This document shows, piece after piece, positions 53,033-64,000 of a stretch of DNA of 64,000 nt. Source of the DNA: Dehalococcoidia bacterium (lineage in GTDB: Bacteria; Chloroflexota; Dehalococcoidia; Dehalococcoidales; UBA2162). Within the stretch, counting starts at the first letter, position 1. Each line of letters opens with the position of its first letter. The translations under genes were made by a program, and so were the position numbers. The stretch lies in assembly GCA_011191975.1 (NCBI GenBank), contig DUFA01000117.1, forward strand, positions 1 through 64,000, read 5' to 3'. The notes under the pieces were generated by a model, which made no database searches, was not told the origin of the DNA, and saw only the letters and a list, made by a program, of their open reading frames with translations.

Positions 53033-54103
53033 ATGGCAAATATACCGGATAAGATAGAAACCTGGCAGATGACAGAGCCGGGTAAACTAGCGCGAGTGAG
53101 TCTTGATATGCCTGAAATACAGGCGGGAGAAGTGGTAGTTGAGATTGCAGGTTGTGGCGTATGTCATACCGACCTTGGTTATTTCTACGACGGCGTCCCA
53201 ACGGTAAACCAACCACCGATGACATTGGGGCATGAAATCAGCGGTACTGTCATAGCCGGTGATGAAAAGATGATAGGAAAAGAAGTGATTATTCCGGCAG
53301 TAATGCCGTGTAATAATTGTCCTATCTGTGCTTCTGGCAGGGGAAACAGGTGCCTTGCCCAGAAGATGCCTGGTAATAGTTATGGCATATATGGTGGTTT
53401 TTCAAGTCACATAGTTGTACCCTCACAGGACCTGTGTGTAATCGATGATAAGAAAGGTTTACCACTTGAAGACTTTGCGGTTATCGCTGATGCAGTGACA
53501 TCCCCATATCAGGCGGCGGTACGGGCGGATGTAAAACCTGGGGATTATATAATAGTGTTAGGCGGTACCGGTGGACTGGGTGTATATGCAACTCAAATCC
53601 TGTCGGCAATGGGAGCCAAGGAAGTAGTCGTTATAGCCCGTAATCAGGAAAAGCTGGACAGAGCGATGAAGTACGGTGCAACCTATACTATAAGCACCGT
53701 AGACAAGAGTCCTCGTGACGTTCGCGATGCTTTCAGGGCGTATAGCAAAGAAAACAAGCTACCAAACTGGGGATGGAAAATATTCGAGTGGTCCGGCTCT
53801 GAAGCCGGGCAGGCAATCGGACTTGAGTTACTTTCATACGTTGGCAAGATGGTGATTGCCGGTTATGGTATGCAGAAGAACGAGTACCAGCTTTCCAGGC
53901 TTATGGCATTTGATGCCGAGATTATCGGTACCTGGGGATGCCTACCTGAATACTATCCTGTAGTCCTCAAGATGGTACAGGAAAAGAAGGTAGCGATAGA
54001 GCCGTTTATCGAAACCCGGCCAATGAGCCAGATTCAACAGGCCTTTGAAGATGGTCATAAAGGCGGAATGGACAAGAGAATAGTACTGATCCCTGATTTT
54101 TAA
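53033..54103 (+). CDS. had: 6-hydroxycyclohex-1-ene-1-carbonyl-CoA dehydrogenase (zinc ADH family)
   Basis: GCGVCHTDLGYFYDGVPT, GHEISG; PNWGWKIFEWSG and GTWGCLPEYYP typical of Had; adjacent Oah. Confidence 0.88.
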   Translation: MANIPDKIETWQMTEPGKLARVSLDMPEIQAGEVVVEIAGCGVCHTDLGYFYDGVPTVNQPPMTLGHEISGTVIAGDEKMIGKEVIIPAVMPCNNCPICASGRGNRCLAQKMPGNSYGIYGGFSSHIVVPSQDLCVIDDKKGLPLEDFAVIADAVTSPYQAAVRADVKPGDYIIVLGGTGGLGVYATQILSAMGAKEVVVIARNQEKLDRAMKYGATYTISTVDKSPRDVRDAFRAYSKENKLPNWGWKIFEWSGSEAGQAIGLELLSYVGKMVIAGYGMQKNEYQLSRLMAFDAEIIGTWGCLPEYYPVVLKMVQEKKVAIEPFIETRPMSQIQQAFEDGHKGGMDKRIVLIPDF

Positions 54104-54131: not shown

Positions 54132-55262
54132 ATGGCTTTAGACTGGATACCAAGAGAGGGTGGTATCAAAGATCATAATCTTTGGGGCGATGAGCTCTTT
54201 GGCACGGAAGCGCCGTGCGTAATTTATGAGGAGAAACCTATTATCGATCCGGAAGGAAATCCTGTAAAAGGACTATACTCGGCATGGGTTACGCTTAATA
54301 ATCCCGATCAGCTCAACTCCTATACAACTGAGATGGTTAAAGGCGTAATCGCGGGTTTCCATCGGGCTCAAATGAACCGGGAAGTAGTTGCCGTGGTATT
54401 TACAGGAGCCGGAACAAGGGCTTTCTGCACTGGCGGTAATACCAAGGAGTATGCCGAGTATTATTCGGAAAAGCACTCGGAATACTACCTGTATATGAAC
54501 ATCTTCAACGGCATGGTTGATGCCATTCTGGGATGTCAGAAGCCGACAATCCGTCGTGTCAATGGCATGAGTGTTGCTGGCGGACAGGAGATTGGTGGTG
54601 CCTGCGATATAGCTATTGCTTCCGACCTGGCTATATTCGGTCAGGCAGGTCCGCGGCATGGCTCTGCTCCTGTTGGTGGTTCTTCCGATTTCCTTCCCTG
54701 GGCTCTCAGCAGTGAAGATGCAATGTGGAATTGTATTTCCTGTGAGATGTGGAGTGCTTACAAGATGCTGAGGAAGAATTATATCAGCAAGGCAGTACCG
54801 ATACTCAAGGATGGTGACAAGTACATCCCGAATCCTCAGGTCATTACGGACAAGTGGATAGAGAACGGGCAGATTGTATACGGCGAATCAGTAACCGGAG
54901 AAGCGGCCAAAGAAGCAAGAGACATGGTTAGATCATTACCTCAGGACCTTACCCTTCTTGACAAGGAAATTGATAAGGTACTCTGGACATTCACCAACCT
55001 GTTCCCCAACTGTCTGATGAAATCGATTAACGGAATCAGGCAGAAAAAGAAATTCTTCTGGGATATGAACAAGAATGAACACCTGACCTGGCTGGCCGCT
55101 AACATGCAGGGTGAAGCATTCCTCGGTTTCACTGCGTTCAATACCAAGAGGATAACCGGAAAAGATACTATCGATTTTATTAAGTTCCGCCAGCTGGTAG
55201 CCGAAGCGGCTCCGATGAACTATGACATGTATGAGCAGGTTCTCGGTAAACCTCAGGAATAA
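54132..55262 (+). CDS. oah: 6-oxocyclohex-1-ene-1-carbonyl-CoA hydrolase (BamA/Oah)
   Basis: Crotonase fold: WVTLNNPDQLNSYTTEMVKGVIAGFHRA; FCTGGNTKEYAEYYS; GQAGPRHGSAPVGGSSDFLPW; C-terminal NMQGEAFLGFTAFNT. Confidence 0.93.
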   Translation: MALDWIPREGGIKDHNLWGDELFGTEAPCVIYEEKPIIDPEGNPVKGLYSAWVTLNNPDQLNSYTTEMVKGVIAGFHRAQMNREVVAVVFTGAGTRAFCTGGNTKEYAEYYSEKHSEYYLYMNIFNGMVDAILGCQKPTIRRVNGMSVAGGQEIGGACDIAIASDLAIFGQAGPRHGSAPVGGSSDFLPWALSSEDAMWNCISCEMWSAYKMLRKNYISKAVPILKDGDKYIPNPQVITDKWIENGQIVYGESVTGEAAKEARDMVRSLPQDLTLLDKEIDKVLWTFTNLFPNCLMKSINGIRQKKKFFWDMNKNEHLTWLAANMQGEAFLGFTAFNTKRITGKDTIDFIKFRQLVAEAAPMNYDMYEQVLGKPQE

Positions 55263-56278: not shown

Positions 56279-56366
56279 TGTATACTATACACGAACACCG
56301 CGACAAACGCATTATCTAATCCAGGTAAGAATGTTATTACCAGTCAATTTCAGGCGAGGAGGAGTT

Positions 56367-57137
56367 ATGGCTTATACAAATATTATCGTTGATAAAAAAG
56401 AAGGTATTACGAAACTAACCATCAATCGTCCTCCAGTGAATGTGATGAACCAGGAAACACTTGGAGAACTATGTACAGCTCTGGAGGAACTAGCCAAAGA
56501 TGATGAAACCAGAGTCCTTTTAATTCGTGGTGAGGGTGAAAGAGCTTTTTGTGCCGGTGTCGAAGTCGCTGACCATGTCGGTGAAAAAATGCCGGTAATG
56601 ATGAAGGAATTTGGACGGATCTTTAAGCTTTTGAGAAACCTTGGTAAACCGACTATCGCTGTAGTCAACGGACTCGCTCTCGGTGGCGGTTGTGAACTTG
56701 TTCTCGGTTGTGATCTGGCTGTAGCCAGCGAAAAAGCCAAACTGGGTCAGCCTGAGATAATTCTCGGAGGGCTGGCACCGGCTGCCGCGCCGCTACTCCC
56801 CAGAATCCTAGGTGAGAAAAAGGCTTTCGAGGTATTGCTTCTTGGTGAAAGTATGAACGCCGTGGATGCGGAGCGATTCGGATTGGTGAACAAGGTTGTC
56901 CCTATTGAGGAACTGGATTCTGCTGCCGAAGAAATGGCCAGGAAATTCCTTAAGATGAGTGGACTCAGTGTTAAGCTTGTAAGGGAAGCATTCTACAAGA
57001 GTGCTGAAATTGCCGATCTCGATAAAGCTCTGGAGACTGCCGTTGAACTGGGAATCAAGAGCTGGGAAACTCATGACGGGCAGGAAGGTCTAAAAGCTTA
57101 TCTGGAAAAAAGAGATCCTGAATGGACTAATACTTAG
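56367..57137 (+). CDS. dch: Cyclohexa-1,5-dienecarbonyl-CoA hydratase-like enoyl-CoA hydratase (Dch/BamR-like)
   Basis: LTINRPPVNVMNQETLGEL; FCAGVEVADH; GLALGGGCELVLGCDLAVAS; strong SD ggagg before ATG 56367; near Had/Oah. Confidence 0.78.
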   Translation: MAYTNIIVDKKEGITKLTINRPPVNVMNQETLGELCTALEELAKDDETRVLLIRGEGERAFCAGVEVADHVGEKMPVMMKEFGRIFKLLRNLGKPTIAVVNGLALGGGCELVLGCDLAVASEKAKLGQPEIILGGLAPAAAPLLPRILGEKKAFEVLLLGESMNAVDAERFGLVNKVVPIEELDSAAEEMARKFLKMSGLSVKLVREAFYKSAEIADLDKALETAVELGIKSWETHDGQEGLKAYLEKRDPEWTNT

Positions 57138-57221
57138 CGGTAAAGCCGAGTTTAATAGTGTGTGCTGTCTCCTTGTTTGCAAACAGGTAAGGAGATGGTA
57201 TTAATCAAGAGGAGGTCTATA

Positions 57222-59279
57222 ATGACACAGAAAGTTGTCAAGACTGACTGCATCATGTGCATCAACAGTTGCGGCATCAACGCCTATGTTGAGGATGGTA
57301 AGTTAGTCAAGGTAGAAGGTATGCCCGAGCACACCATCAGCGAGGGTTATATCTGTCCCAGGGGAGAAGCGCTTGTTGAGTATGTATATTCTCCGGATCG
57401 TCTGCTACATCCGATGAAGAAGGTAAATGGGGAATGGGAAAGGATTACCTGGGATGAAGCCCTGGACACCATTGCTGCCAAACTAAAGGAAATCAAGGAA
57501 AAGTATGGCGCCAAAGCGCTTGCCGTGTATAATGGCTCAATAGGCACCGAAAATATCGAATTGGCTGGTTTCGGTCAGAGATTCCGCGGAGCATATGGAA
57601 CCCCTAATCTACTTACCGTTGAGGGTAACTGCTTCCGTTCCAGAATTATGGCACGGCAAATGACCTTTGGAACTCAGTATATAGAAGAGCCCGGGAAATC
57701 CAAGTGCACTATCGTCTGGGGGCGAAACATGGATAACTCCGGCGGCCTTGTCGCCGAGAAAATATACAGAGCACTGGATAACGGTACACTGGAGCATCTG
57801 GTAATAGTCGATCCCAAGCGTATCCCAATGGCTGCCAGAGGGACTTATATCCAGATACGTCCAGGGACCGACACAGCCCTAATGCTGGGGATGATGAATG
57901 TCATCATCGAAGAAAAGTTGTACGATAAAGAATTTATCGATGAGTATACAATCGGTTTTGATAAACTCGTCGAGCATGTAAAGGAATACCCACCGGAGAA
58001 GGTGGAAACGATTACATGGGTACCTGCTGAGGATATCAGGAAAATCGCCCGTATCTTTGCTAACAATAAGCCAGCGTGTAATGTTGCCGGTACGGCACCT
58101 ATTGATCAGCATATTAATGGTTTTCAGGGTAACCGTGCCATGAATCTGCTTCAGGTTATTACTGGTAACTTGAACATTCCAGGAAGCTGGATAACCATAC
58201 CGTTCATCCGCCTGGGCGACCTCAGGTTACCGGAAGTTGACGAACCAATCGGGGCGGAAGAACATCCTCTTTTCAGACGTTTCTGGGGCAGGACATCACC
58301 TTACGGCCAGCAGAACCTTTTTGCTGAGTCCGTGCTGGAAGGGAAACCTTATGCCTTAAAGGCTATGATAGTAAACGGTGGCAATCCCGCACTTACACTC
58401 CCTGATTCAGCCCGAATCCACGAAGCGATGGAGAAACTCGAATTCCTGGTAGTAACGGACCTGTTTATGACTGATACCGCCAAACTGGCGGACATTGTTC
58501 TTCCGGCTTGTTCCTTCCTCGAGAAGAGTGGTGTCGGATACGTTTATGGAGTTACCTTAGGTGAACCTTACGCTCTGCTGCGTAAAAAAGTGGTAGAACC
58601 TGTCGGTGAAAGCTGGCCTGACTGGAAAATCTGGACCGAACTGGGCAGGAGAATGGGCTATGACGAATACTTCCCCTGGAATTCTGACGAGGAGGTGGTA
58701 GATTTCTTCCTTGAACCTAGCGGCGTGACAAGGGAACAGCTTGACAAAGAACATCCTGAGGGTATGTATTACGTCGATGAGAATAGCAAATACCTAATCC
58801 CCAAATACAGGACTCCGTCAGGGAAAATTGAAATTTACTCAGAAACTCTGGAAGAGAATGGCTATGATCCCATACCTTGCCATATCGAACCTACCCAGAG
58901 TCCGGTCAGCTCACCGGAACTAGCCGAGAAGTATCCTGTAATTCTGACCACCGGTTCCCGTATTCCACAGTATACTCATACTCAGTATAGGACGTTGCCA
59001 TCACTGAAAAAAGATGCTCCGGAACCGATCGCAGAAGTTAATCCGACGACAGCAAAGAAATATGGAATATCTGACGGTGATATGATGTCCATAGAAACGA
59101 TCAAGGGGAAAATCGAGATGAAAGTTCACCTGATCGAGGAGTTGGCTCCTAATGTTGTCAGTATACCGCACGGCTGGACCGAGGCTAATGCCAACCTGCT
59201 AACTTCGGCTGATGTCCGCGATCCCATTACCGGTTATACCGAGATGAAAGCGCTGTTGTGTAAAATCCAGAAAGTGTAA
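57222..59279 (+). CDS. Molybdopterin-dependent oxidoreductase (DMSO reductase superfamily) with N-terminal 4Fe-4S
   Basis: DCIMCINSCGINAYVEDGKLVKVEG...YICPRG; DPLRLLHPMKK-like segment; ADIVLPACSFLEKSG; SD aggagg before ATG 57222. Confidence 0.92.
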   Translation: MTQKVVKTDCIMCINSCGINAYVEDGKLVKVEGMPEHTISEGYICPRGEALVEYVYSPDRLLHPMKKVNGEWERITWDEALDTIAAKLKEIKEKYGAKALAVYNGSIGTENIELAGFGQRFRGAYGTPNLLTVEGNCFRSRIMARQMTFGTQYIEEPGKSKCTIVWGRNMDNSGGLVAEKIYRALDNGTLEHLVIVDPKRIPMAARGTYIQIRPGTDTALMLGMMNVIIEEKLYDKEFIDEYTIGFDKLVEHVKEYPPEKVETITWVPAEDIRKIARIFANNKPACNVAGTAPIDQHINGFQGNRAMNLLQVITGNLNIPGSWITIPFIRLGDLRLPEVDEPIGAEEHPLFRRFWGRTSPYGQQNLFAESVLEGKPYALKAMIVNGGNPALTLPDSARIHEAMEKLEFLVVTDLFMTDTAKLADIVLPACSFLEKSGVGYVYGVTLGEPYALLRKKVVEPVGESWPDWKIWTELGRRMGYDEYFPWNSDEEVVDFFLEPSGVTREQLDKEHPEGMYYVDENSKYLIPKYRTPSGKIEIYSETLEENGYDPIPCHIEPTQSPVSSPELAEKYPVILTTGSRIPQYTHTQYRTLPSLKKDAPEPIAEVNPTTAKKYGISDGDMMSIETIKGKIEMKVHLIEELAPNVVSIPHGWTEANANLLTSADVRDPITGYTEMKALLCKIQKV

Positions 59280-59299
59280 AAAACGATCATAATATACTT

Positions 59300-59342
59300 A
59301 AGCTGTGCAGTTACCATGTCCGATAGCTGCACAGCTTTTTTT
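59300..59342 (+). terminator. Intrinsic terminator after molybdopterin oxidoreductase
   Basis: AGCTGTGCAG-N16-CTGCACAGCT followed by T-tract. Confidence 0.88.
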
Positions 59343-59387: not shown

Positions 59388-59873
59388 CTAAATACTCTGT
59401 TTAGGAAAAGTGCCAAGTAGTCTCTCTGCTGCCGCGTATTGTTTTGCAGCGTTCACTTCGGATGCATCGATGTAACGAATGGCGTTCGTCTCGCAGAACC
59501 TTACGCATTGAGGATCGCCGTCGCAGTAGTTACATTTTACGGTGATACCCTCGGCTTTATCGAACAAAGGAGCACCGAAAGGACAGGCAACGATACAGGT
59601 TTTGCATCCGATACACTTGTCCTTATCTATTATTACCCGATTAAGTTCCGGGTCCTTCCGGCAGGCTTTAGTAGGGCAGACTTCTACGCAGAAGGGATCT
59701 TCGCAGTTCTGGCATGTCATCGGGAGATAAATACCTTCCCACTCCCATTTGAACACTTTGATCCGGGCGCGGCTTGGGTTGCTGGCTCCGGTATGAAAAA
59801 CCGAACATGCGAGCTCACATTCCCGGCATCCTGTACATTTTTCATGGTCGATGTATAGTACTTTTCCCTGCAT
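59388..59873 (-). CDS. 4Fe-4S ferredoxin-type electron transfer subunit
   Basis: CTGCRECELACSVFH; CQNCEDPFCVEVCP; CIGCKTCIVACPFGA; CNYCDGDPQCVRFC. Confidence 0.92.
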   Translation of the reverse strand: MQGKVLYIDHEKCTGCRECELACSVFHTGASNPSRARIKVFKWEWEGIYLPMTCQNCEDPFCVEVCPTKACRKDPELNRVIIDKDKCIGCKTCIVACPFGAPLFDKAEGITVKCNYCDGDPQCVRFCETNAIRYIDASEVNAAKQYAAAERLLGTFPKQSI

Positions 59874-59911
59874 ATCAATAACTCCCTTCTGTATGCCCGA
59901 ATATAATTATC

Positions 59912-60775
59912 TTAATTAACAAACTCAAGGTATCTATGATTTTCTAGCCAACGCTGCATAGGAGGTTCTTCTTTAATACCTGCATAAATCGTTGCGTACC
60001 TTATAAAGAAACCTCCCAGCAACAGGAACGTACCCGCCAGAAACAGCAGAAAATACTGGTCGTGAAGTCGTGAGTATATTCCTTCAAGGATGACGGGCAA
60101 TAAGAATCCGCATATTACTATGCCCATCCAGAAAACGTATCTCAGGTTGCCGGACAGCAGTAGTTGGACCGAATACATCCCGTATTCTTTTAATCTGTAT
60201 CGGGTAAAAAGGTATGAAGCCAGAATAACAGCTTCGATAATAACCATCACCTGTTCTATAGAGGTAAGCGTCTTTGCCATCTGCTCTGGAAAGCCGGTGG
60301 ATGTGGTGAAGATATTATATGTTGTCGATAAAAGCATGACTGCCATCGCTCCGGTAGAGAGAGCCGATACAGTAAATAACAATGGCAGGAGCCAAGTATC
60401 CCAAAACGGAACATACCTTACGGACATAATAAGAATACCGGTATATATCGCTGTACTAAGTGCAAAGATGAAACTGATGATATCCAGCAACGTGATTAGC
60501 CATGGCCAGAGCTCAACATTGATATTCAAATACGGGAGAATGGATATGATAAAGTCGATACCACCGATAATTATACAGACAGATAGTATATAAAAACCTC
60601 GTGAAAGCCAGGAGGTCATCGGATTCATGATCGTGTTCAGAAATCTTCTTTTAACACCCAGTTTGAGGACAAGGAAAAGGGCACCTACAGCGACAAGCAC
60701 AGGCCCCCACAGTATGGTATATCTTAATCCATCGGGGATATAACCCAGCCAGTGCATCAACAGGCCTATAGTCAT
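59912..60775 (-). CDS. NrfD/PsrC-like membrane subunit (true N-terminus lies upstream of the first ATG)
   Basis: Multi-TM; in-frame upstream QHEWGWQVAVYLYLAGIGSGS typical of NrfD TM1. Confidence 0.8.
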   Translation of the reverse strand: MTIGLLMHWLGYIPDGLRYTILWGPVLVAVGALFLVLKLGVKRRFLNTIMNPMTSWLSRGFYILSVCIIIGGIDFIISILPYLNINVELWPWLITLLDIISFIFALSTAIYTGILIMSVRYVPFWDTWLLPLLFTVSALSTGAMAVMLLSTTYNIFTTSTGFPEQMAKTLTSIEQVMVIIEAVILASYLFTRYRLKEYGMYSVQLLLSGNLRYVFWMGIVICGFLLPVILEGIYSRLHDQYFLLFLAGTFLLLGGFFIRYATIYAGIKEEPPMQRWLENHRYLEFVN

Positions 60776-60936
60776 TGAACCTGAACCTATTCCCGCAAGG
60801 TACAGATATACCGCTACCTGCCAGCCCCATTCATGTTGAGGTTTAATTGATCTGGATTTTAAAAACTCGTCGATGTTTTTTATCTTATTTTCTATTCTTA
60901 CACCAGATATCAGGTATTCAGTGGTGAAATATCTCT

Positions 60937-61209
60937 CTATCCACCGGCGATCTGCATTAAAATATAGATCTCGTCGCCATTTTTCACTGGTTTAACCAGT
61001 TCGTCGGGATGGGCACTTTCATCATTAACGAAAATATCGATATATTTACTTAGTTTTCCCTTTGCCTCGAACAGCCATTCATCAAGCTCGGGAAATTCTG
61101 CAACAAGGTTTTTAAAGCACTCGCCGACATTATTACCATCCACTTCGACAACTTCCCGGTCATCAGTAATGTGTCGTAACGAGGGATGGATATGTATCTT
61201 AACACTCAT
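60937..61209 (-). CDS. MoaD/ThiS-like protein, copy 2
   Basis: 90 aa ending ...ILMQIAGG; beta-grasp like; paralog of 61237-61509. Confidence 0.87.
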   Translation of the reverse strand: MSVKIHIHPSLRHITDDREVVEVDGNNVGECFKNLVAEFPELDEWLFEAKGKLSKYIDIFVNDESAHPDELVKPVKNGDEIYILMQIAGG

Positions 61210-61236
61210 ATACGTAACCTCTACCGTGCAACCGAA

Positions 61237-61509
61237 CTATCCCCCGGCTATAACGATAACCAGGTTTATATCATCTCCGTCTGTTACCTTTGTTTCCAGT
61301 CTTTCAGATAGCGTACTCTGCATATTGACGAACACATCAAACATAATATTCAGTTCCCTATCTTTAGTAAAAAGCCATTCATCCAGTTCCGGGTATCTCT
61401 CGACCAGTTTCTGAAGACATTCGCCAACGGTTTTCCCGTCAACCTCGTGAATGTCTTTGTTTTCAGCCAGGTGAATCAGGAATGGGTGAAGGTGTATTTT
61501 TACACTCAT
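61237..61509 (-). CDS. MoaD/ThiS-like protein, copy 1
   Basis: 90 aa ending ...LVIVIAGG. Confidence 0.87.
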   Translation of the reverse strand: MSVKIHLHPFLIHLAENKDIHEVDGKTVGECLQKLVERYPELDEWLFTKDRELNIMFDVFVNMQSTLSERLETKVTDGDDINLVIVIAGG

Positions 61510-61525
61510 CTGTTATCCTGTTACG

Positions 61526-61558
61526 AAACAGCCTACAGACATAGGTTGCAGGCTGTTT
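61526..61558. other. Intra-operon hairpin between ferredoxin and moaD copy 1
   Basis: AAACAGCCT / AGGCTGTTT arms. Confidence 0.6.
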
Positions 61559-61569
61559 TACTGTTACAG

Positions 61570-62061
61570 TTAGATAGTAATTCCGACTGCATTCTGTACG
61601 AAGGCTATGAATTTATCAGCTATCGCTATCTGCTTATCGATGCTCTGCTCGGTAGCATCTGCATATCTGATGGCTTTCGTCTCACAGAATCGAACACACT
61701 GTGGATCTCCATCACAGAAATCACATTTCATTACTTTCTGGGTTAACGGATTGTAAGACATTGCTCCGAAAGGACAGACAGCAACACATGCCCGACATCC
61801 GATGCAGGTATTGTAGTCGATTACCACCCGATTCAGTTCATGATCTCGTGATATTGCACTCATCGGGCATATCGTCATGCAAGGTGCTGTTTCGCACTGC
61901 TGACAGGTAATCGGAATATATATTCCTTCCCATTCTCTTTTAATAACTTTTATCCGACTTCTCGCCGGGTTGCTGACGCCTTCATGCTGTATACCACAAA
62001 CTAACTCACATTCCCGGCAGCCGGTGCATTTCTCATAATCCAGTATTAGTACTTTGGCCAC
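61570..62061 (-). CDS. 4Fe-4S ferredoxin-type subunit (AOR partner)
   Basis: CTGCRECELVCGIQHEG; CQQCETAPCMTICP; CIGCRACVAVCPFGA; CDFCDGDPQCVRFC. Confidence 0.92.
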   Translation of the reverse strand: MAKVLILDYEKCTGCRECELVCGIQHEGVSNPARSRIKVIKREWEGIYIPITCQQCETAPCMTICPMSAISRDHELNRVVIDYNTCIGCRACVAVCPFGAMSYNPLTQKVMKCDFCDGDPQCVRFCETKAIRYADATEQSIDKQIAIADKFIAFVQNAVGITI

Positions 62062-62080
62062 TTATATTCTCCTTTCAATA

Positions 62081-63988
62081 TTACAGCATGTGTGAAGGCT
62101 CTTTATCGAGTCCAAGCCTCTTCAGGGTCTCCTCTGTGGGAACCCCGTTTTCATCCCACCCGTGGTGCTGATAAAATTCATCGATCATCTTGGTGAATTT
62201 TTCTCTGTCAATACTCAGTCCACGGATAGAGGGCATACCCAGCGGATTAGGTAAATCGAAGTAACGATCAACCAGCCAGTCGTCTTTTCGGGTTAATCCT
62301 TCTCTAAGGTTAAACATTCTTTCAAGGTTATTTGCCCTCTCAGCTGCTGTCCATATATCCAGAGGACTCATATCCAGTCCTGTGATTAAGTGGATCAACT
62401 TGGACCACTCTTCGAAATTCGGATGGGTAGCACCAAGGAATGTAGTATGGTATTTACAAATACCCAGACTGTCTACAGCCATATAGCAGTTCTCTTGCCA
62501 GAACACCTGCCATGGTTTTCCTTCATAATCCCGGAAATCAGAAGTTAGCGGTCCATCATAGGGAACAGGCTGGCTGTAAATCTTCCTGAGAACCGGTTCC
62601 GGCAGATGATAAAGATCAATCGCCGGACGACTCCTCAGGTGGTCATTGCCACGTGAGGCGGTGGCTACATTCAACGCCAGAGCGGGAGTACCTCTTTCAT
62701 CCGAGTTCATCTGGCCCATTCCTTTTACGCCAACCCAGTGGTCTATCGAATTCCTCCCTATTTTCGCGGCAGCGCGATGTCCGCCTTCTGCCAGGATATC
62801 ACCGAAGCCTTCTCGCTCACCGATTTGACGAGTAAGTTCGAGTACTGCGTCGATGTTGCCCCAGGTCAGTTCAAGACCGCCGGTATCTTCTTTATTTATA
62901 ATGCCATCTTCGTAGAGTTCGATTGCCCAGGCGATAATATTACCAACCTCAAGAACATCGATTCCGTACCTGTTGGTCAGGTGAGTCCCTTCAAGAATAC
63001 CGACGGTATCACGGCAGCCGGTTATTGAGCCAAAGGATACCTGGTGGGTGTATTCAGGGCCTTCGTCATATGTGCCAGCCATAGGACCCTCAGGAATCAC
63101 GAATTTTCCCCTGCAGTGAACGCCGCAGCCGAAACAGGCAGCCATTCCTTGAATATATTCGTCGATTGCTTCTGCTTCCACGGCATCAGAATTTACCAGC
63201 TGGTTGAGTAGAGTGTTATGAGTATTTACCAGTCCCTGTGTATTGGTCGCGCCGAAAATAAACGGTGTTCCTAGTCTTCCTTGGGTCTGGCTGACTTTCG
63301 ATGAGGTAATCTGAGTCATAAATTCACGGTTGTAATCAAGGGCTTCACGCGGATGTGCCAGCGTTATATCCATTGTTCCCCTTGCGGCAACCGCTTTCAA
63401 GTTTTTGGAGCCGAGTACGGCGCCCATTCCCGTCCGGCCACCCGAATTCTTAGGACCTGTCATTACGTTAGCAAAACGAACCATTTTTTCGCCACCGGGA
63501 CCGATGGTGAGTACCTTGATGTCCCTGTCGCCGAGTTCGTCACGGATAGCCTGTTGTGAATCCATTACGTATTTGCCCCATACGTTGGCGGCGTCCTTTA
63601 TCTCGATTTCACCGTTGTGTACCCAAAGGTATACAGGTTTTGGGGCTTTCCCGGTGATAACCAGGTGGTCGAATCCAGCCCATCTCATTTCAGGAGTAAA
63701 GAATCCTCCTCCGTTACAGCTTCCGTAGAAATTTGTTAAAGGTGATTTGGCGCAGACGTGGACGCGGCATGATGCCGATGCCGGTGTCCCTACAAGCAGA
63801 CCTGCGCTGATAATAGCCACGTTGTCAGGTCCGAGTGCATCCACTCCTGGTTTCAGATGATTGTACAGTAAATAAGCATCGAGACCCCTACTGCCGATAT
63901 ATTTCTTTCTCATCTCGATGGATATCGGACTGGTCTCGATTTTTCCGCTGGTAAGGTCGATAAACGCTACTTTTCTGTTAAGAGCCAT
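62081..63988 (-). CDS. Aldehyde ferredoxin oxidoreductase family tungsten enzyme
   Basis: FIDLTSGKIETSPISIEMRKKYIGSRGLDAYLLY; GPKNSGGRTGMGAVLGSKNLKAVAARGT; CFGCGVHC; DSLGICKY. Confidence 0.94.
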   Translation of the reverse strand: MALNRKVAFIDLTSGKIETSPISIEMRKKYIGSRGLDAYLLYNHLKPGVDALGPDNVAIISAGLLVGTPASASCRVHVCAKSPLTNFYGSCNGGGFFTPEMRWAGFDHLVITGKAPKPVYLWVHNGEIEIKDAANVWGKYVMDSQQAIRDELGDRDIKVLTIGPGGEKMVRFANVMTGPKNSGGRTGMGAVLGSKNLKAVAARGTMDITLAHPREALDYNREFMTQITSSKVSQTQGRLGTPFIFGATNTQGLVNTHNTLLNQLVNSDAVEAEAIDEYIQGMAACFGCGVHCRGKFVIPEGPMAGTYDEGPEYTHQVSFGSITGCRDTVGILEGTHLTNRYGIDVLEVGNIIAWAIELYEDGIINKEDTGGLELTWGNIDAVLELTRQIGEREGFGDILAEGGHRAAAKIGRNSIDHWVGVKGMGQMNSDERGTPALALNVATASRGNDHLRSRPAIDLYHLPEPVLRKIYSQPVPYDGPLTSDFRDYEGKPWQVFWQENCYMAVDSLGICKYHTTFLGATHPNFEEWSKLIHLITGLDMSPLDIWTAAERANNLERMFNLREGLTRKDDWLVDRYFDLPNPLGMPSIRGLSIDREKFTKMIDEFYQHHGWDENGVPTEETLKRLGLDKEPSHML

Positions 63989-64000
63989 CTATTTCTTCTC

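What the first reader, a model, noticed from the sequence alone, without database searches (positions are those of the whole stretch)
59388..63988. AOR-Fd-MoaD-MoaD-NrfD-Fd cluster: possible membrane-anchored tungsten AOR complex
Seen: a minus-strand cluster encodes an AOR-family enzyme, a 4-cluster ferredoxin, two MoaD-like proteins, an NrfD-like membrane protein and a second 4-cluster ferredoxin. Knowledge: AOR enzymes usually work with soluble ferredoxin. NrfD/PsrC proteins paired with ferredoxin-like subunits exchange electrons with quinones in DMSO/polysulfide/nitrite reductase-type complexes. Inference: this would be a quinone-linked AOR respiratory complex, an architecture I do not recall as characterised.
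Basis: partly seen in the sequence, partly recalled or inferred. Interest (0 to 1): 0.78.

Follow-up and report, generated by a model that had tools for sequence, protein, structure and literature searches.

The report
Membrane-linked tungsten enzyme in aromatic-degradation island
Beside its benzoate-degradation genes this uncultured Chloroflexota bacterium carries a tungsten-type enzyme, two electron-wire proteins and a membrane protein that recur together in distant bacteria, which suggests a membrane-attached tungsten enzyme that is probably not an ordinary aldehyde oxidase and may not use quinones.

Summary
The operon also has a zinc-ribbon gene just past the window edge, and the NrfD frame runs further upstream without a standard start codon. 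Association is not chance: among 395 sampled Desulfobacterota genomes, all 14 with this NrfD type also carry this AOR type (13 full length, 1 contig-end fragment; background 47-48/395; Fisher p 2e-12 to 2e-14, relatedness uncorrected), mostly within 10 kb and in several gene orders. Twelve other AOR loci have a different membrane subunit (TmcC/HmcE-like cytochrome b fused to ferredoxin) near the AOR. The two ferredoxins are 57% identical WorS paralogs. So a membrane-attached AOR-family complex is likely (0.6). Two inferences weaken. (1) Typical aldehyde oxidase: Glu313 and Tyr427 are Thr and Ser in the window and 74/74 close homologs. (2) Quinone link: neither menaquinone marker passed in this genome, and the literature says its subphylum makes no quinones. 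The enzyme sits by Had-Oah of the benzoyl-CoA pathway but is not the benzoyl-CoA reductase: a true BamB lies elsewhere in the genome. New variant of a known kind (membrane-associated tungsten oxidoreductases); substrate, electron direction and acceptor are unproven.

The parts
62081..63988 (-). AOR/WOR-family large subunit (WorL), 635 aa; [4Fe-4S] Cys285/288/292/511; Thr314 and Ser429 at the places of Pfu Glu313 and Tyr427; Thr241 and His450 kept; Asp308 where BamB has its W-binding Cys322
61570..62061 (-). Fd1: WorS-type four-cluster ferredoxin, 163 aa, GTG start, no Tat signal by inspection
   Evidence: best PDB matches are AOR small subunits 8c0z_C and 9mqx_E
61523..61556 (-). Stable RNA hairpin between Fd1 and MoaD1 (z = -4.0), no U tract; possible processing or attenuation site inside the operon
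61237..61509 (-). MoaD1 (MoaD/ThiS-like; WorX in tungsten-enzyme literature), C-terminal GG
60937..61209 (-). MoaD2, 48% identical to MoaD1, C-terminal GG
59912..60838 (-). NrfD-family integral membrane protein, about 308 aa; start codon unresolved (first ATG at 60775 lies inside the first predicted helix; frame open to 60991)
59388..59873 (-). Fd2: second WorS-type four-cluster ferredoxin, 161 aa, 57% identical to Fd1, no Tat signal by inspection; adjacent to NrfD in all 15 related genomes examined
63989..64000 (-). End of the zinc-ribbon gene (85 aa) directly upstream of the AOR; the gene runs on to contig C21:64246 outside the window; conserved before the AOR in most clade loci
59290..59340 (.). 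Long stem-loop between the convergent ends of Fd2 and MopB; terminator-like
53033..54103 (+). [quoted passage not shown] same island, up to 65% identical to Had in the Desulfobacterota islands
54132..55262 (+). Oah, 6-oxocyclohex-1-ene-1-carbonyl-CoA hydratase (TIGR03200, 512.6 bits against cut-off 464.45)
56331..57137 (+). Enoyl-CoA hydratase-family protein (possible dienoyl-CoA hydratase)
57162..59279 (+). MopB-family molybdopterin oxidoreductase (formate dehydrogenase/thiosulfate reductase-like), convergent neighbour; rival partner for NrfD

Best explanation
The operon encodes a membrane-attached tungsten (AOR/WOR-family) oxidoreductase complex on the cytoplasmic face, belonging to an aromatic-degradation island. 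WorL exchanges two electrons with an unidentified aromatic or alicyclic substrate; electrons run along its [4Fe-4S] cluster, Fd1 (four clusters) and the paralogous Fd2 (four clusters) to NrfD, which anchors the assembly and may couple electron flow to proton movement. The two MoaD proteins serve pterin-cofactor assembly. Shown: gene content, conserved linkage, WorS ancestry of both ferredoxins, replaced active-site residues. Inferred: physical complex, cytoplasmic orientation (no export signal on the Fds), tungsten, electron direction, proton coupling. NrfD's redox partner is open; a classical quinone link is not supported in this lineage, so an OmeB-like quinone-independent role is at least as likely.
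For: NrfD type (at least 57% to the L181 protein) in 14/395 Desulfobacterota genomes; all 14 have the AOR type, 13 at full threshold plus G813 as a contig-end fragment. On one contig in most, with gaps of 1.2-9.9 kb in 13 loci including the window, in at least four gene orders; Fd2 beside NrfD in 15/15 and MoaD nearby in most. Fd1/Fd2 57% identical, both matching AOR small subunits best; the Fd2s form one clade with the window's Fd2 (97/94). Alternative membrane subunit (TmcC/HmcE-like plus 2[4Fe-4S]) near ZnR-AOR in 12 loci, directly upstream in several. Had-Oah-ECH in the same island in the window, L132, L237 and L245.
Against: Most AOR-clade genomes lack this NrfD (34 of 48 in the Desulfobacterota sample), so the AOR does not need it. 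In two genomes (G496, G483) NrfD-Fd2 and AOR are on different contigs. A stable hairpin splits the operon after Fd1, and the MoaD genes lie between the modules. NrfD has no standard start codon. No complex could be modelled; the single-chain NrfD model was poor (mean pLDDT 51.6). The Fisher test ignores relatedness of the genomes.
Confidence: 0.6

Rival explanations
1. AOR-Fd1 is a soluble class II tungsten oxidoreductase using ferredoxin; NrfD-Fd2 is a separate membrane module that shares only the island and perhaps a soluble ferredoxin with it.
For: Core ZnR-AOR-Fd1 occurs alone in most loci; NrfD-Fd2 is on another contig in G496 and G483; hairpin after Fd1.
Against: This NrfD type was never seen without the AOR in the 395-genome sample; Fd2 is a paralog of the AOR small subunit; a second, unrelated membrane subunit is linked to the same AOR elsewhere.
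Confidence: 0.2
2. NrfD-Fd2 is the membrane arm of the neighbouring MopB enzyme (57162-59279), giving a PsrABC-like complex; the AOR is a bystander.
For: NrfD normally pairs with MopB enzymes; window MopB ends 109 bp away; close MopB homologs lie in the same island in G515, G526 and G564; more distant homologs (377-384 bits) occur in Fd-NrfD-MopB operons.
Against: MopB at about 49% identity or more was found in only about half of the 15 NrfD genomes, and also in genomes lacking this NrfD, whereas AOR is in all 15; MopB is on the opposite strand; Fd2 is WorS-like, best PDB match an AOR subunit (145.8 bits) and not NrfC (50.2 bits).
Confidence: 0.12
3. One reading: a menaquinone-reducing aldehyde oxidase that conserves energy.
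For: NrfD proteins usually bind quinones; a UbiA-family prenyltransferase is present in all 8 genomes searched.
Against: No PF02621 match above cut-off and no MenD above cut-off in 8 of 8 genomes (G000 is 92.7% complete); [quoted passage not shown] Glu313 and Tyr427 replaced.
Confidence: 0.1
4. The AOR is a second class II benzoyl-CoA reductase (BamB).
For: AOR-family enzyme with ferredoxin beside Had-Oah.
Against: BamB scores 220 bits against 336 for Pfu AOR; the W-ligating Cys322 is Asp in the window and Asp/Glu in nearly all of the clade; a true BamB (1071 bits) is elsewhere in the genome.
Confidence: 0.02

Closest known systems
Class V tungsten/molybdenum oxidoreductases (clade 41; E. coli YdhYVWXUT)
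   Same: AOR-family catalytic subunit with polyferredoxins and a membrane subunit
   Different: Ydh: YdhX begins with an RR export-like motif and YdhY with a hydrophobic N-terminus, YdhU is a putative cytochrome with no NrfD similarity; YdhV only 23% identical to the window AOR. Window: no export signal, NrfD anchor, paralogous Fd pair
Aromatoleum aromaticum AOR (8c0z) and Acetomicrobium WOR (9mqx)
   Same: WorL plus WorS-type ferredoxin subunits; both window Fds match these best
   Different: Those pass electrons to NAD or bifurcating subunits, not to a membrane protein; aldehyde-type active site
Class II benzoyl-CoA reductase BamBC
   Same: AOR-family plus ferredoxin, benzoyl-CoA pathway context
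   Different: No Cys322; low similarity; genuine BamB encoded elsewhere in this genome
Polysulfide/DMSO/nitrite reductase-type NrfD complexes (PsrABC, NrfCD)
   Same: NrfD plus four-cluster ferredoxin
   Different: Catalytic subunit in the operon is AOR-family, not MopB; Fd2 is WorS-type
Organohalide respiration complex of Dehalococcoides (OmeAB-Hup-Rdh)
   Same: NrfD-family membrane subunit (OmeB) in what I read as the same bacterial order, quinone-independent (PMC10772276)
   Different: CISM-type OmeA, hydrogenase and dehalogenase instead of AOR

Membership tests
AOR/WOR superfamily | AFOR_N plus AFOR_C domains and four cluster cysteines | tested here: met
AOR sensu stricto (aldehyde oxidoreductases) | Second-shell Thr243, Glu313, Tyr427, His448 (Pfu numbering; PMC12096430, PMC13328260) | tested here: not met
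   Window Thr/Thr/Ser/His; Glu313 to Thr and Tyr427 to Ser in 74/74 close homologs
Class II benzoyl-CoA reductase (BamB) | W-ligating Cys322; close similarity to 4z3w | tested here: not met
   Asp308; 220 bits; true BamB in L052
WOR class II (WorL plus WorS) | Large subunit with adjacent four-cluster small subunit | tested here: met
WOR class V | Tat signal and/or transmembrane segment in WorS | tested here: not met
   Fd1 and Fd2 start MAKVLILDYEKCTGC and MQGKVLYIDHEKCTGC, by inspection
WOR class V | Membership of WorL clade 41 (YdhV) | tested here: inconclusive
   23% identity to YdhV; falls far from YdhV in a quick FastTree tree; the published 92-clade tree was not rerun
NrfD/PsrC family | PF03916 above cut-off with multiple transmembrane helices | tested here: met
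   82.6 bits; about eight hydrophobic segments
Quinone-linked NrfD respiratory complex | Quinone available and bound | tested here: inconclusive
   MqnA/D and MenD markers not found above cut-off; salvage or incomplete genome not excluded
Quinone-linked NrfD respiratory complex | Physical contact NrfD-Fd-catalytic subunit | not testable with these tools
   No multimer prediction available; monomer model poor

The most novel reading that the evidence does not exclude
A quinone-independent, proton-coupled tungsten oxidoreductase complex (WorL-WorS-WorS'-NrfD) with a non-aldehyde active site that handles an intermediate of anaerobic aromatic degradation, present in Chloroflexota and Syntrophaceae-like Desulfobacterota.
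Probability: 0.2. Interest if true: 0.85.

Novelty: new variant of a known kind. Interest (0 to 1): 0.6.

Why it matters
How syntrophic aromatic degraders conserve energy is an open question. A WOR clade with replaced catalytic residues, wired to the membrane by NrfD in some lineages and apparently by a cytochrome b-ferredoxin fusion in others, would be a new membrane entry or exit point for electrons in benzoyl-CoA metabolism. It is also a case of an NrfD complex in organisms with no detected quinone pathway. The 2026 WOR classification (PMC13328260) places membrane-associated WORs only in clade 41 and does not mention NrfD.

Tried and rejected
BamB identity (rejected). MopB as NrfD partner (disfavoured). 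Contig contamination from Desulfobacterota (rejected: composition and housekeeping genes). NrfD AlphaFold model from 3 sequences was too poor to use for fold searching; phmmer of NrfD against PDB gave nothing. Other AORs of this genome: 26 further copies, none with NrfD in the stretches fetched, though some are cut by contig ends. Rfam found nothing at 52-64 kb. Promoter and terminator scans were about chance level. Literature searches for AOR with NrfD found nothing relevant by title and abstract. Substrate could not be deduced; the radical SAM, EutA-like, MetF/MetV and UbiD/UbiX-like neighbours seen in various Desulfobacterota loci did not point to one reaction.
Full report
Observation. The minus-strand genes AOR, Fd1, MoaD1, MoaD2, NrfD and Fd2 are present as described, with Pfam scores above cut-off. 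The operon starts earlier than the window: an 85-aa zinc-ribbon gene abuts the AOR ATG. It is conserved before the AOR in most homologous loci. The NrfD frame is open to 60991 without ATG/GTG/TTG before 60775, although homologs align from about 60838 on.

Organism. The window is contig C21 of a 3.33 Mb, 92.7% complete, 8.3% contaminated MAG. Its order contains a genome with reductive dehalogenases, hydrogenase and an NrfD-like gene (G073), so I read it as Dehalococcoidales (inference). Tetranucleotide composition of every part of the window matches the other contigs of the genome (0.85-0.87; own-own mean 0.82). GltX and RluD are closest to the Dehalococcoides-like G019, whereas Had, Oah, MopB, AOR and NrfD are closest to Desulfobacterota among the loci held. 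That fits an island shared by horizontal transfer (inference).

What the AOR is. The closest solved structures are Pfu AOR (336 bits), 9mqx and 8c0z, with BamB behind (220 bits). The genome has a true BamB (1071 bits to 4z3w), a paralog beside an HdrA-like protein and 27 AOR-family genes in all. Of 80 close homologs found (mostly 59-66% identical, mainly Desulfobacterota, also Aminicenantes and Acidobacteria), nearly all keep ZnR-AOR-Fd1. Aligned to Pfu AOR, the window and 74 close homologs have Thr for Glu313 and Ser for Tyr427, keep Thr243 and His448, and have Arg for Tyr452; Asp (69), Glu (5) or Gly (1) stands at BamB's Cys322. Reviews name Thr243/Glu313/Tyr427/His448 as the second-shell set of aldehyde oxidoreductases and give Glu313 and Tyr427 roles in the proposed mechanism (PMC12096430, PMC13328260). 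The enzyme is therefore a member of the superfamily but fails the sequence test for a typical aldehyde oxidase, and it is not BamB.

The ferredoxins. Fd1 and Fd2 are 57% identical and both match the AOR small subunits 8c0z_C and 9mqx_E best. Fd2 is thus WorS-derived; the NrfC chain of a solved polysulfide reductase scores far lower (50.2 bits against 145.8). In a tree the Desulfobacterota Fd2s group with the window Fd2 (97/94).

The NrfD link. A search of 395 Desulfobacterota genomes with the L181 NrfD found 14 close homologs (57% or more) and two distant ones (35-41%). All 14 genomes also have the AOR clade: 13 at the E 1e-200 threshold, G813 as a fragment at a contig end. The clade is in 47-48 of 395 overall; Fisher p is 2e-12 to 2e-14, not corrected for relatedness. 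The two genomes with distant NrfDs lack the clade. NrfD and AOR lie 1.2-9.9 kb apart on one contig in 13 loci including the window, and also on one contig in G813, in several orders and orientations. Fd2 is next to NrfD in all 15 related genomes examined, with MoaD, MoeB and an IclR regulator common nearby. G496 and G483 have the two modules on different contigs.

A second membrane subunit. Twelve other clade loci carry a TmcC/HmcE-like membrane cytochrome b fused to two [4Fe-4S] clusters near ZnR-AOR, in some cases directly upstream on the same strand. The genomes of five of these loci (L112, L122, L127, L136, L165) were searched for NrfD and none has the close type. Two unrelated membrane subunits linked to one AOR clade is the best argument for membrane wiring.

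Island. Had-Oah-ECH lie near the AOR in the window, L132, L237 and L245, and close MopB homologs in G515, G526 and G564. The acyl-CoA dehydrogenase of L132 is nearest the cyclohexane-1-carbonyl-CoA dehydrogenase model but below its cut-off.

Quinones. Neither PF02621 nor MenD passed its cut-off in this genome or seven NrfD-bearing Desulfobacterota; controls rang. A UbiA-family gene is present. [quoted passage not shown] PMC10772276 describes the quinone-independent NrfD-type OmeB of Dehalococcoides. Salvage or missing contigs are not excluded, so the quinone link is unsupported, not disproved.

Mechanism. Most likely: substrate to WorL, its cluster, Fd1, Fd2, NrfD, on the cytoplasmic face. Gene content, linkage, paralogy and active-site changes are shown; complex, metal, direction, substrate and proton coupling are inferred. 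A hairpin between Fd1 and MoaD1 (z -4.0) leaves co-transcription open.

Novelty. Membrane-associated WORs are known as class V, defined by Tat or transmembrane WorS and clade 41 (PMC13328260). E. coli Ydh differs in export signals, membrane subunit and sequence. NrfD is not mentioned in that paper or in PMC12096430. I rate this a new variant of a known kind.

Noticed in passing
whole genome G000: 27 AOR-family (AFOR_N) genes in one 3.3 Mb Chloroflexota MAG, most with different neighbours.
   Followed up: partly
L052:3206-5191 and L051:4573-6477: A close BamB (1071 bits to G. metallireducens BamB) and a BamB paralog next to an HdrA-like 1121-aa protein: class II benzoyl-CoA reductase in this Dehalococcoidales-like genome.
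   Followed up: yes
L163:56-1072, L165:6687-7691, L127:6507-7580 and nine other loci: TmcC/HmcE-like membrane cytochrome b fused to a 2[4Fe-4S] domain near ZnR-AOR; not found described in the papers read.
   Followed up: partly
contig C21:63989-64246 (L009:3989-4246): Zinc-ribbon protein with a conserved FPRIRGPVW motif before the AOR in most clade loci; only sub-threshold Pfam hits.
   Followed up: partly
window 60775-60991: NrfD frame lacks a standard start codon; non-standard start or sequence error.
   Followed up: no
window 61523-61556: Stable hairpin between Fd1 and MoaD1 inside the operon.
   Followed up: partly
L068:2392-6840: Another order member has Fd-AOR-NrfD followed by 2-oxoacid oxidoreductase-like genes, with a different AOR (active site Thr/Ala/Gly/His).
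   Followed up: no
L078:1-9009: MopB-MopB-Fd-NrfD-Fd-AOR gene order in the same order (G014).
   Followed up: no
window 57162-59279: Formate dehydrogenase-like MopB without its own ferredoxin in the island; 70% identical homolog in G615.
   Followed up: partly
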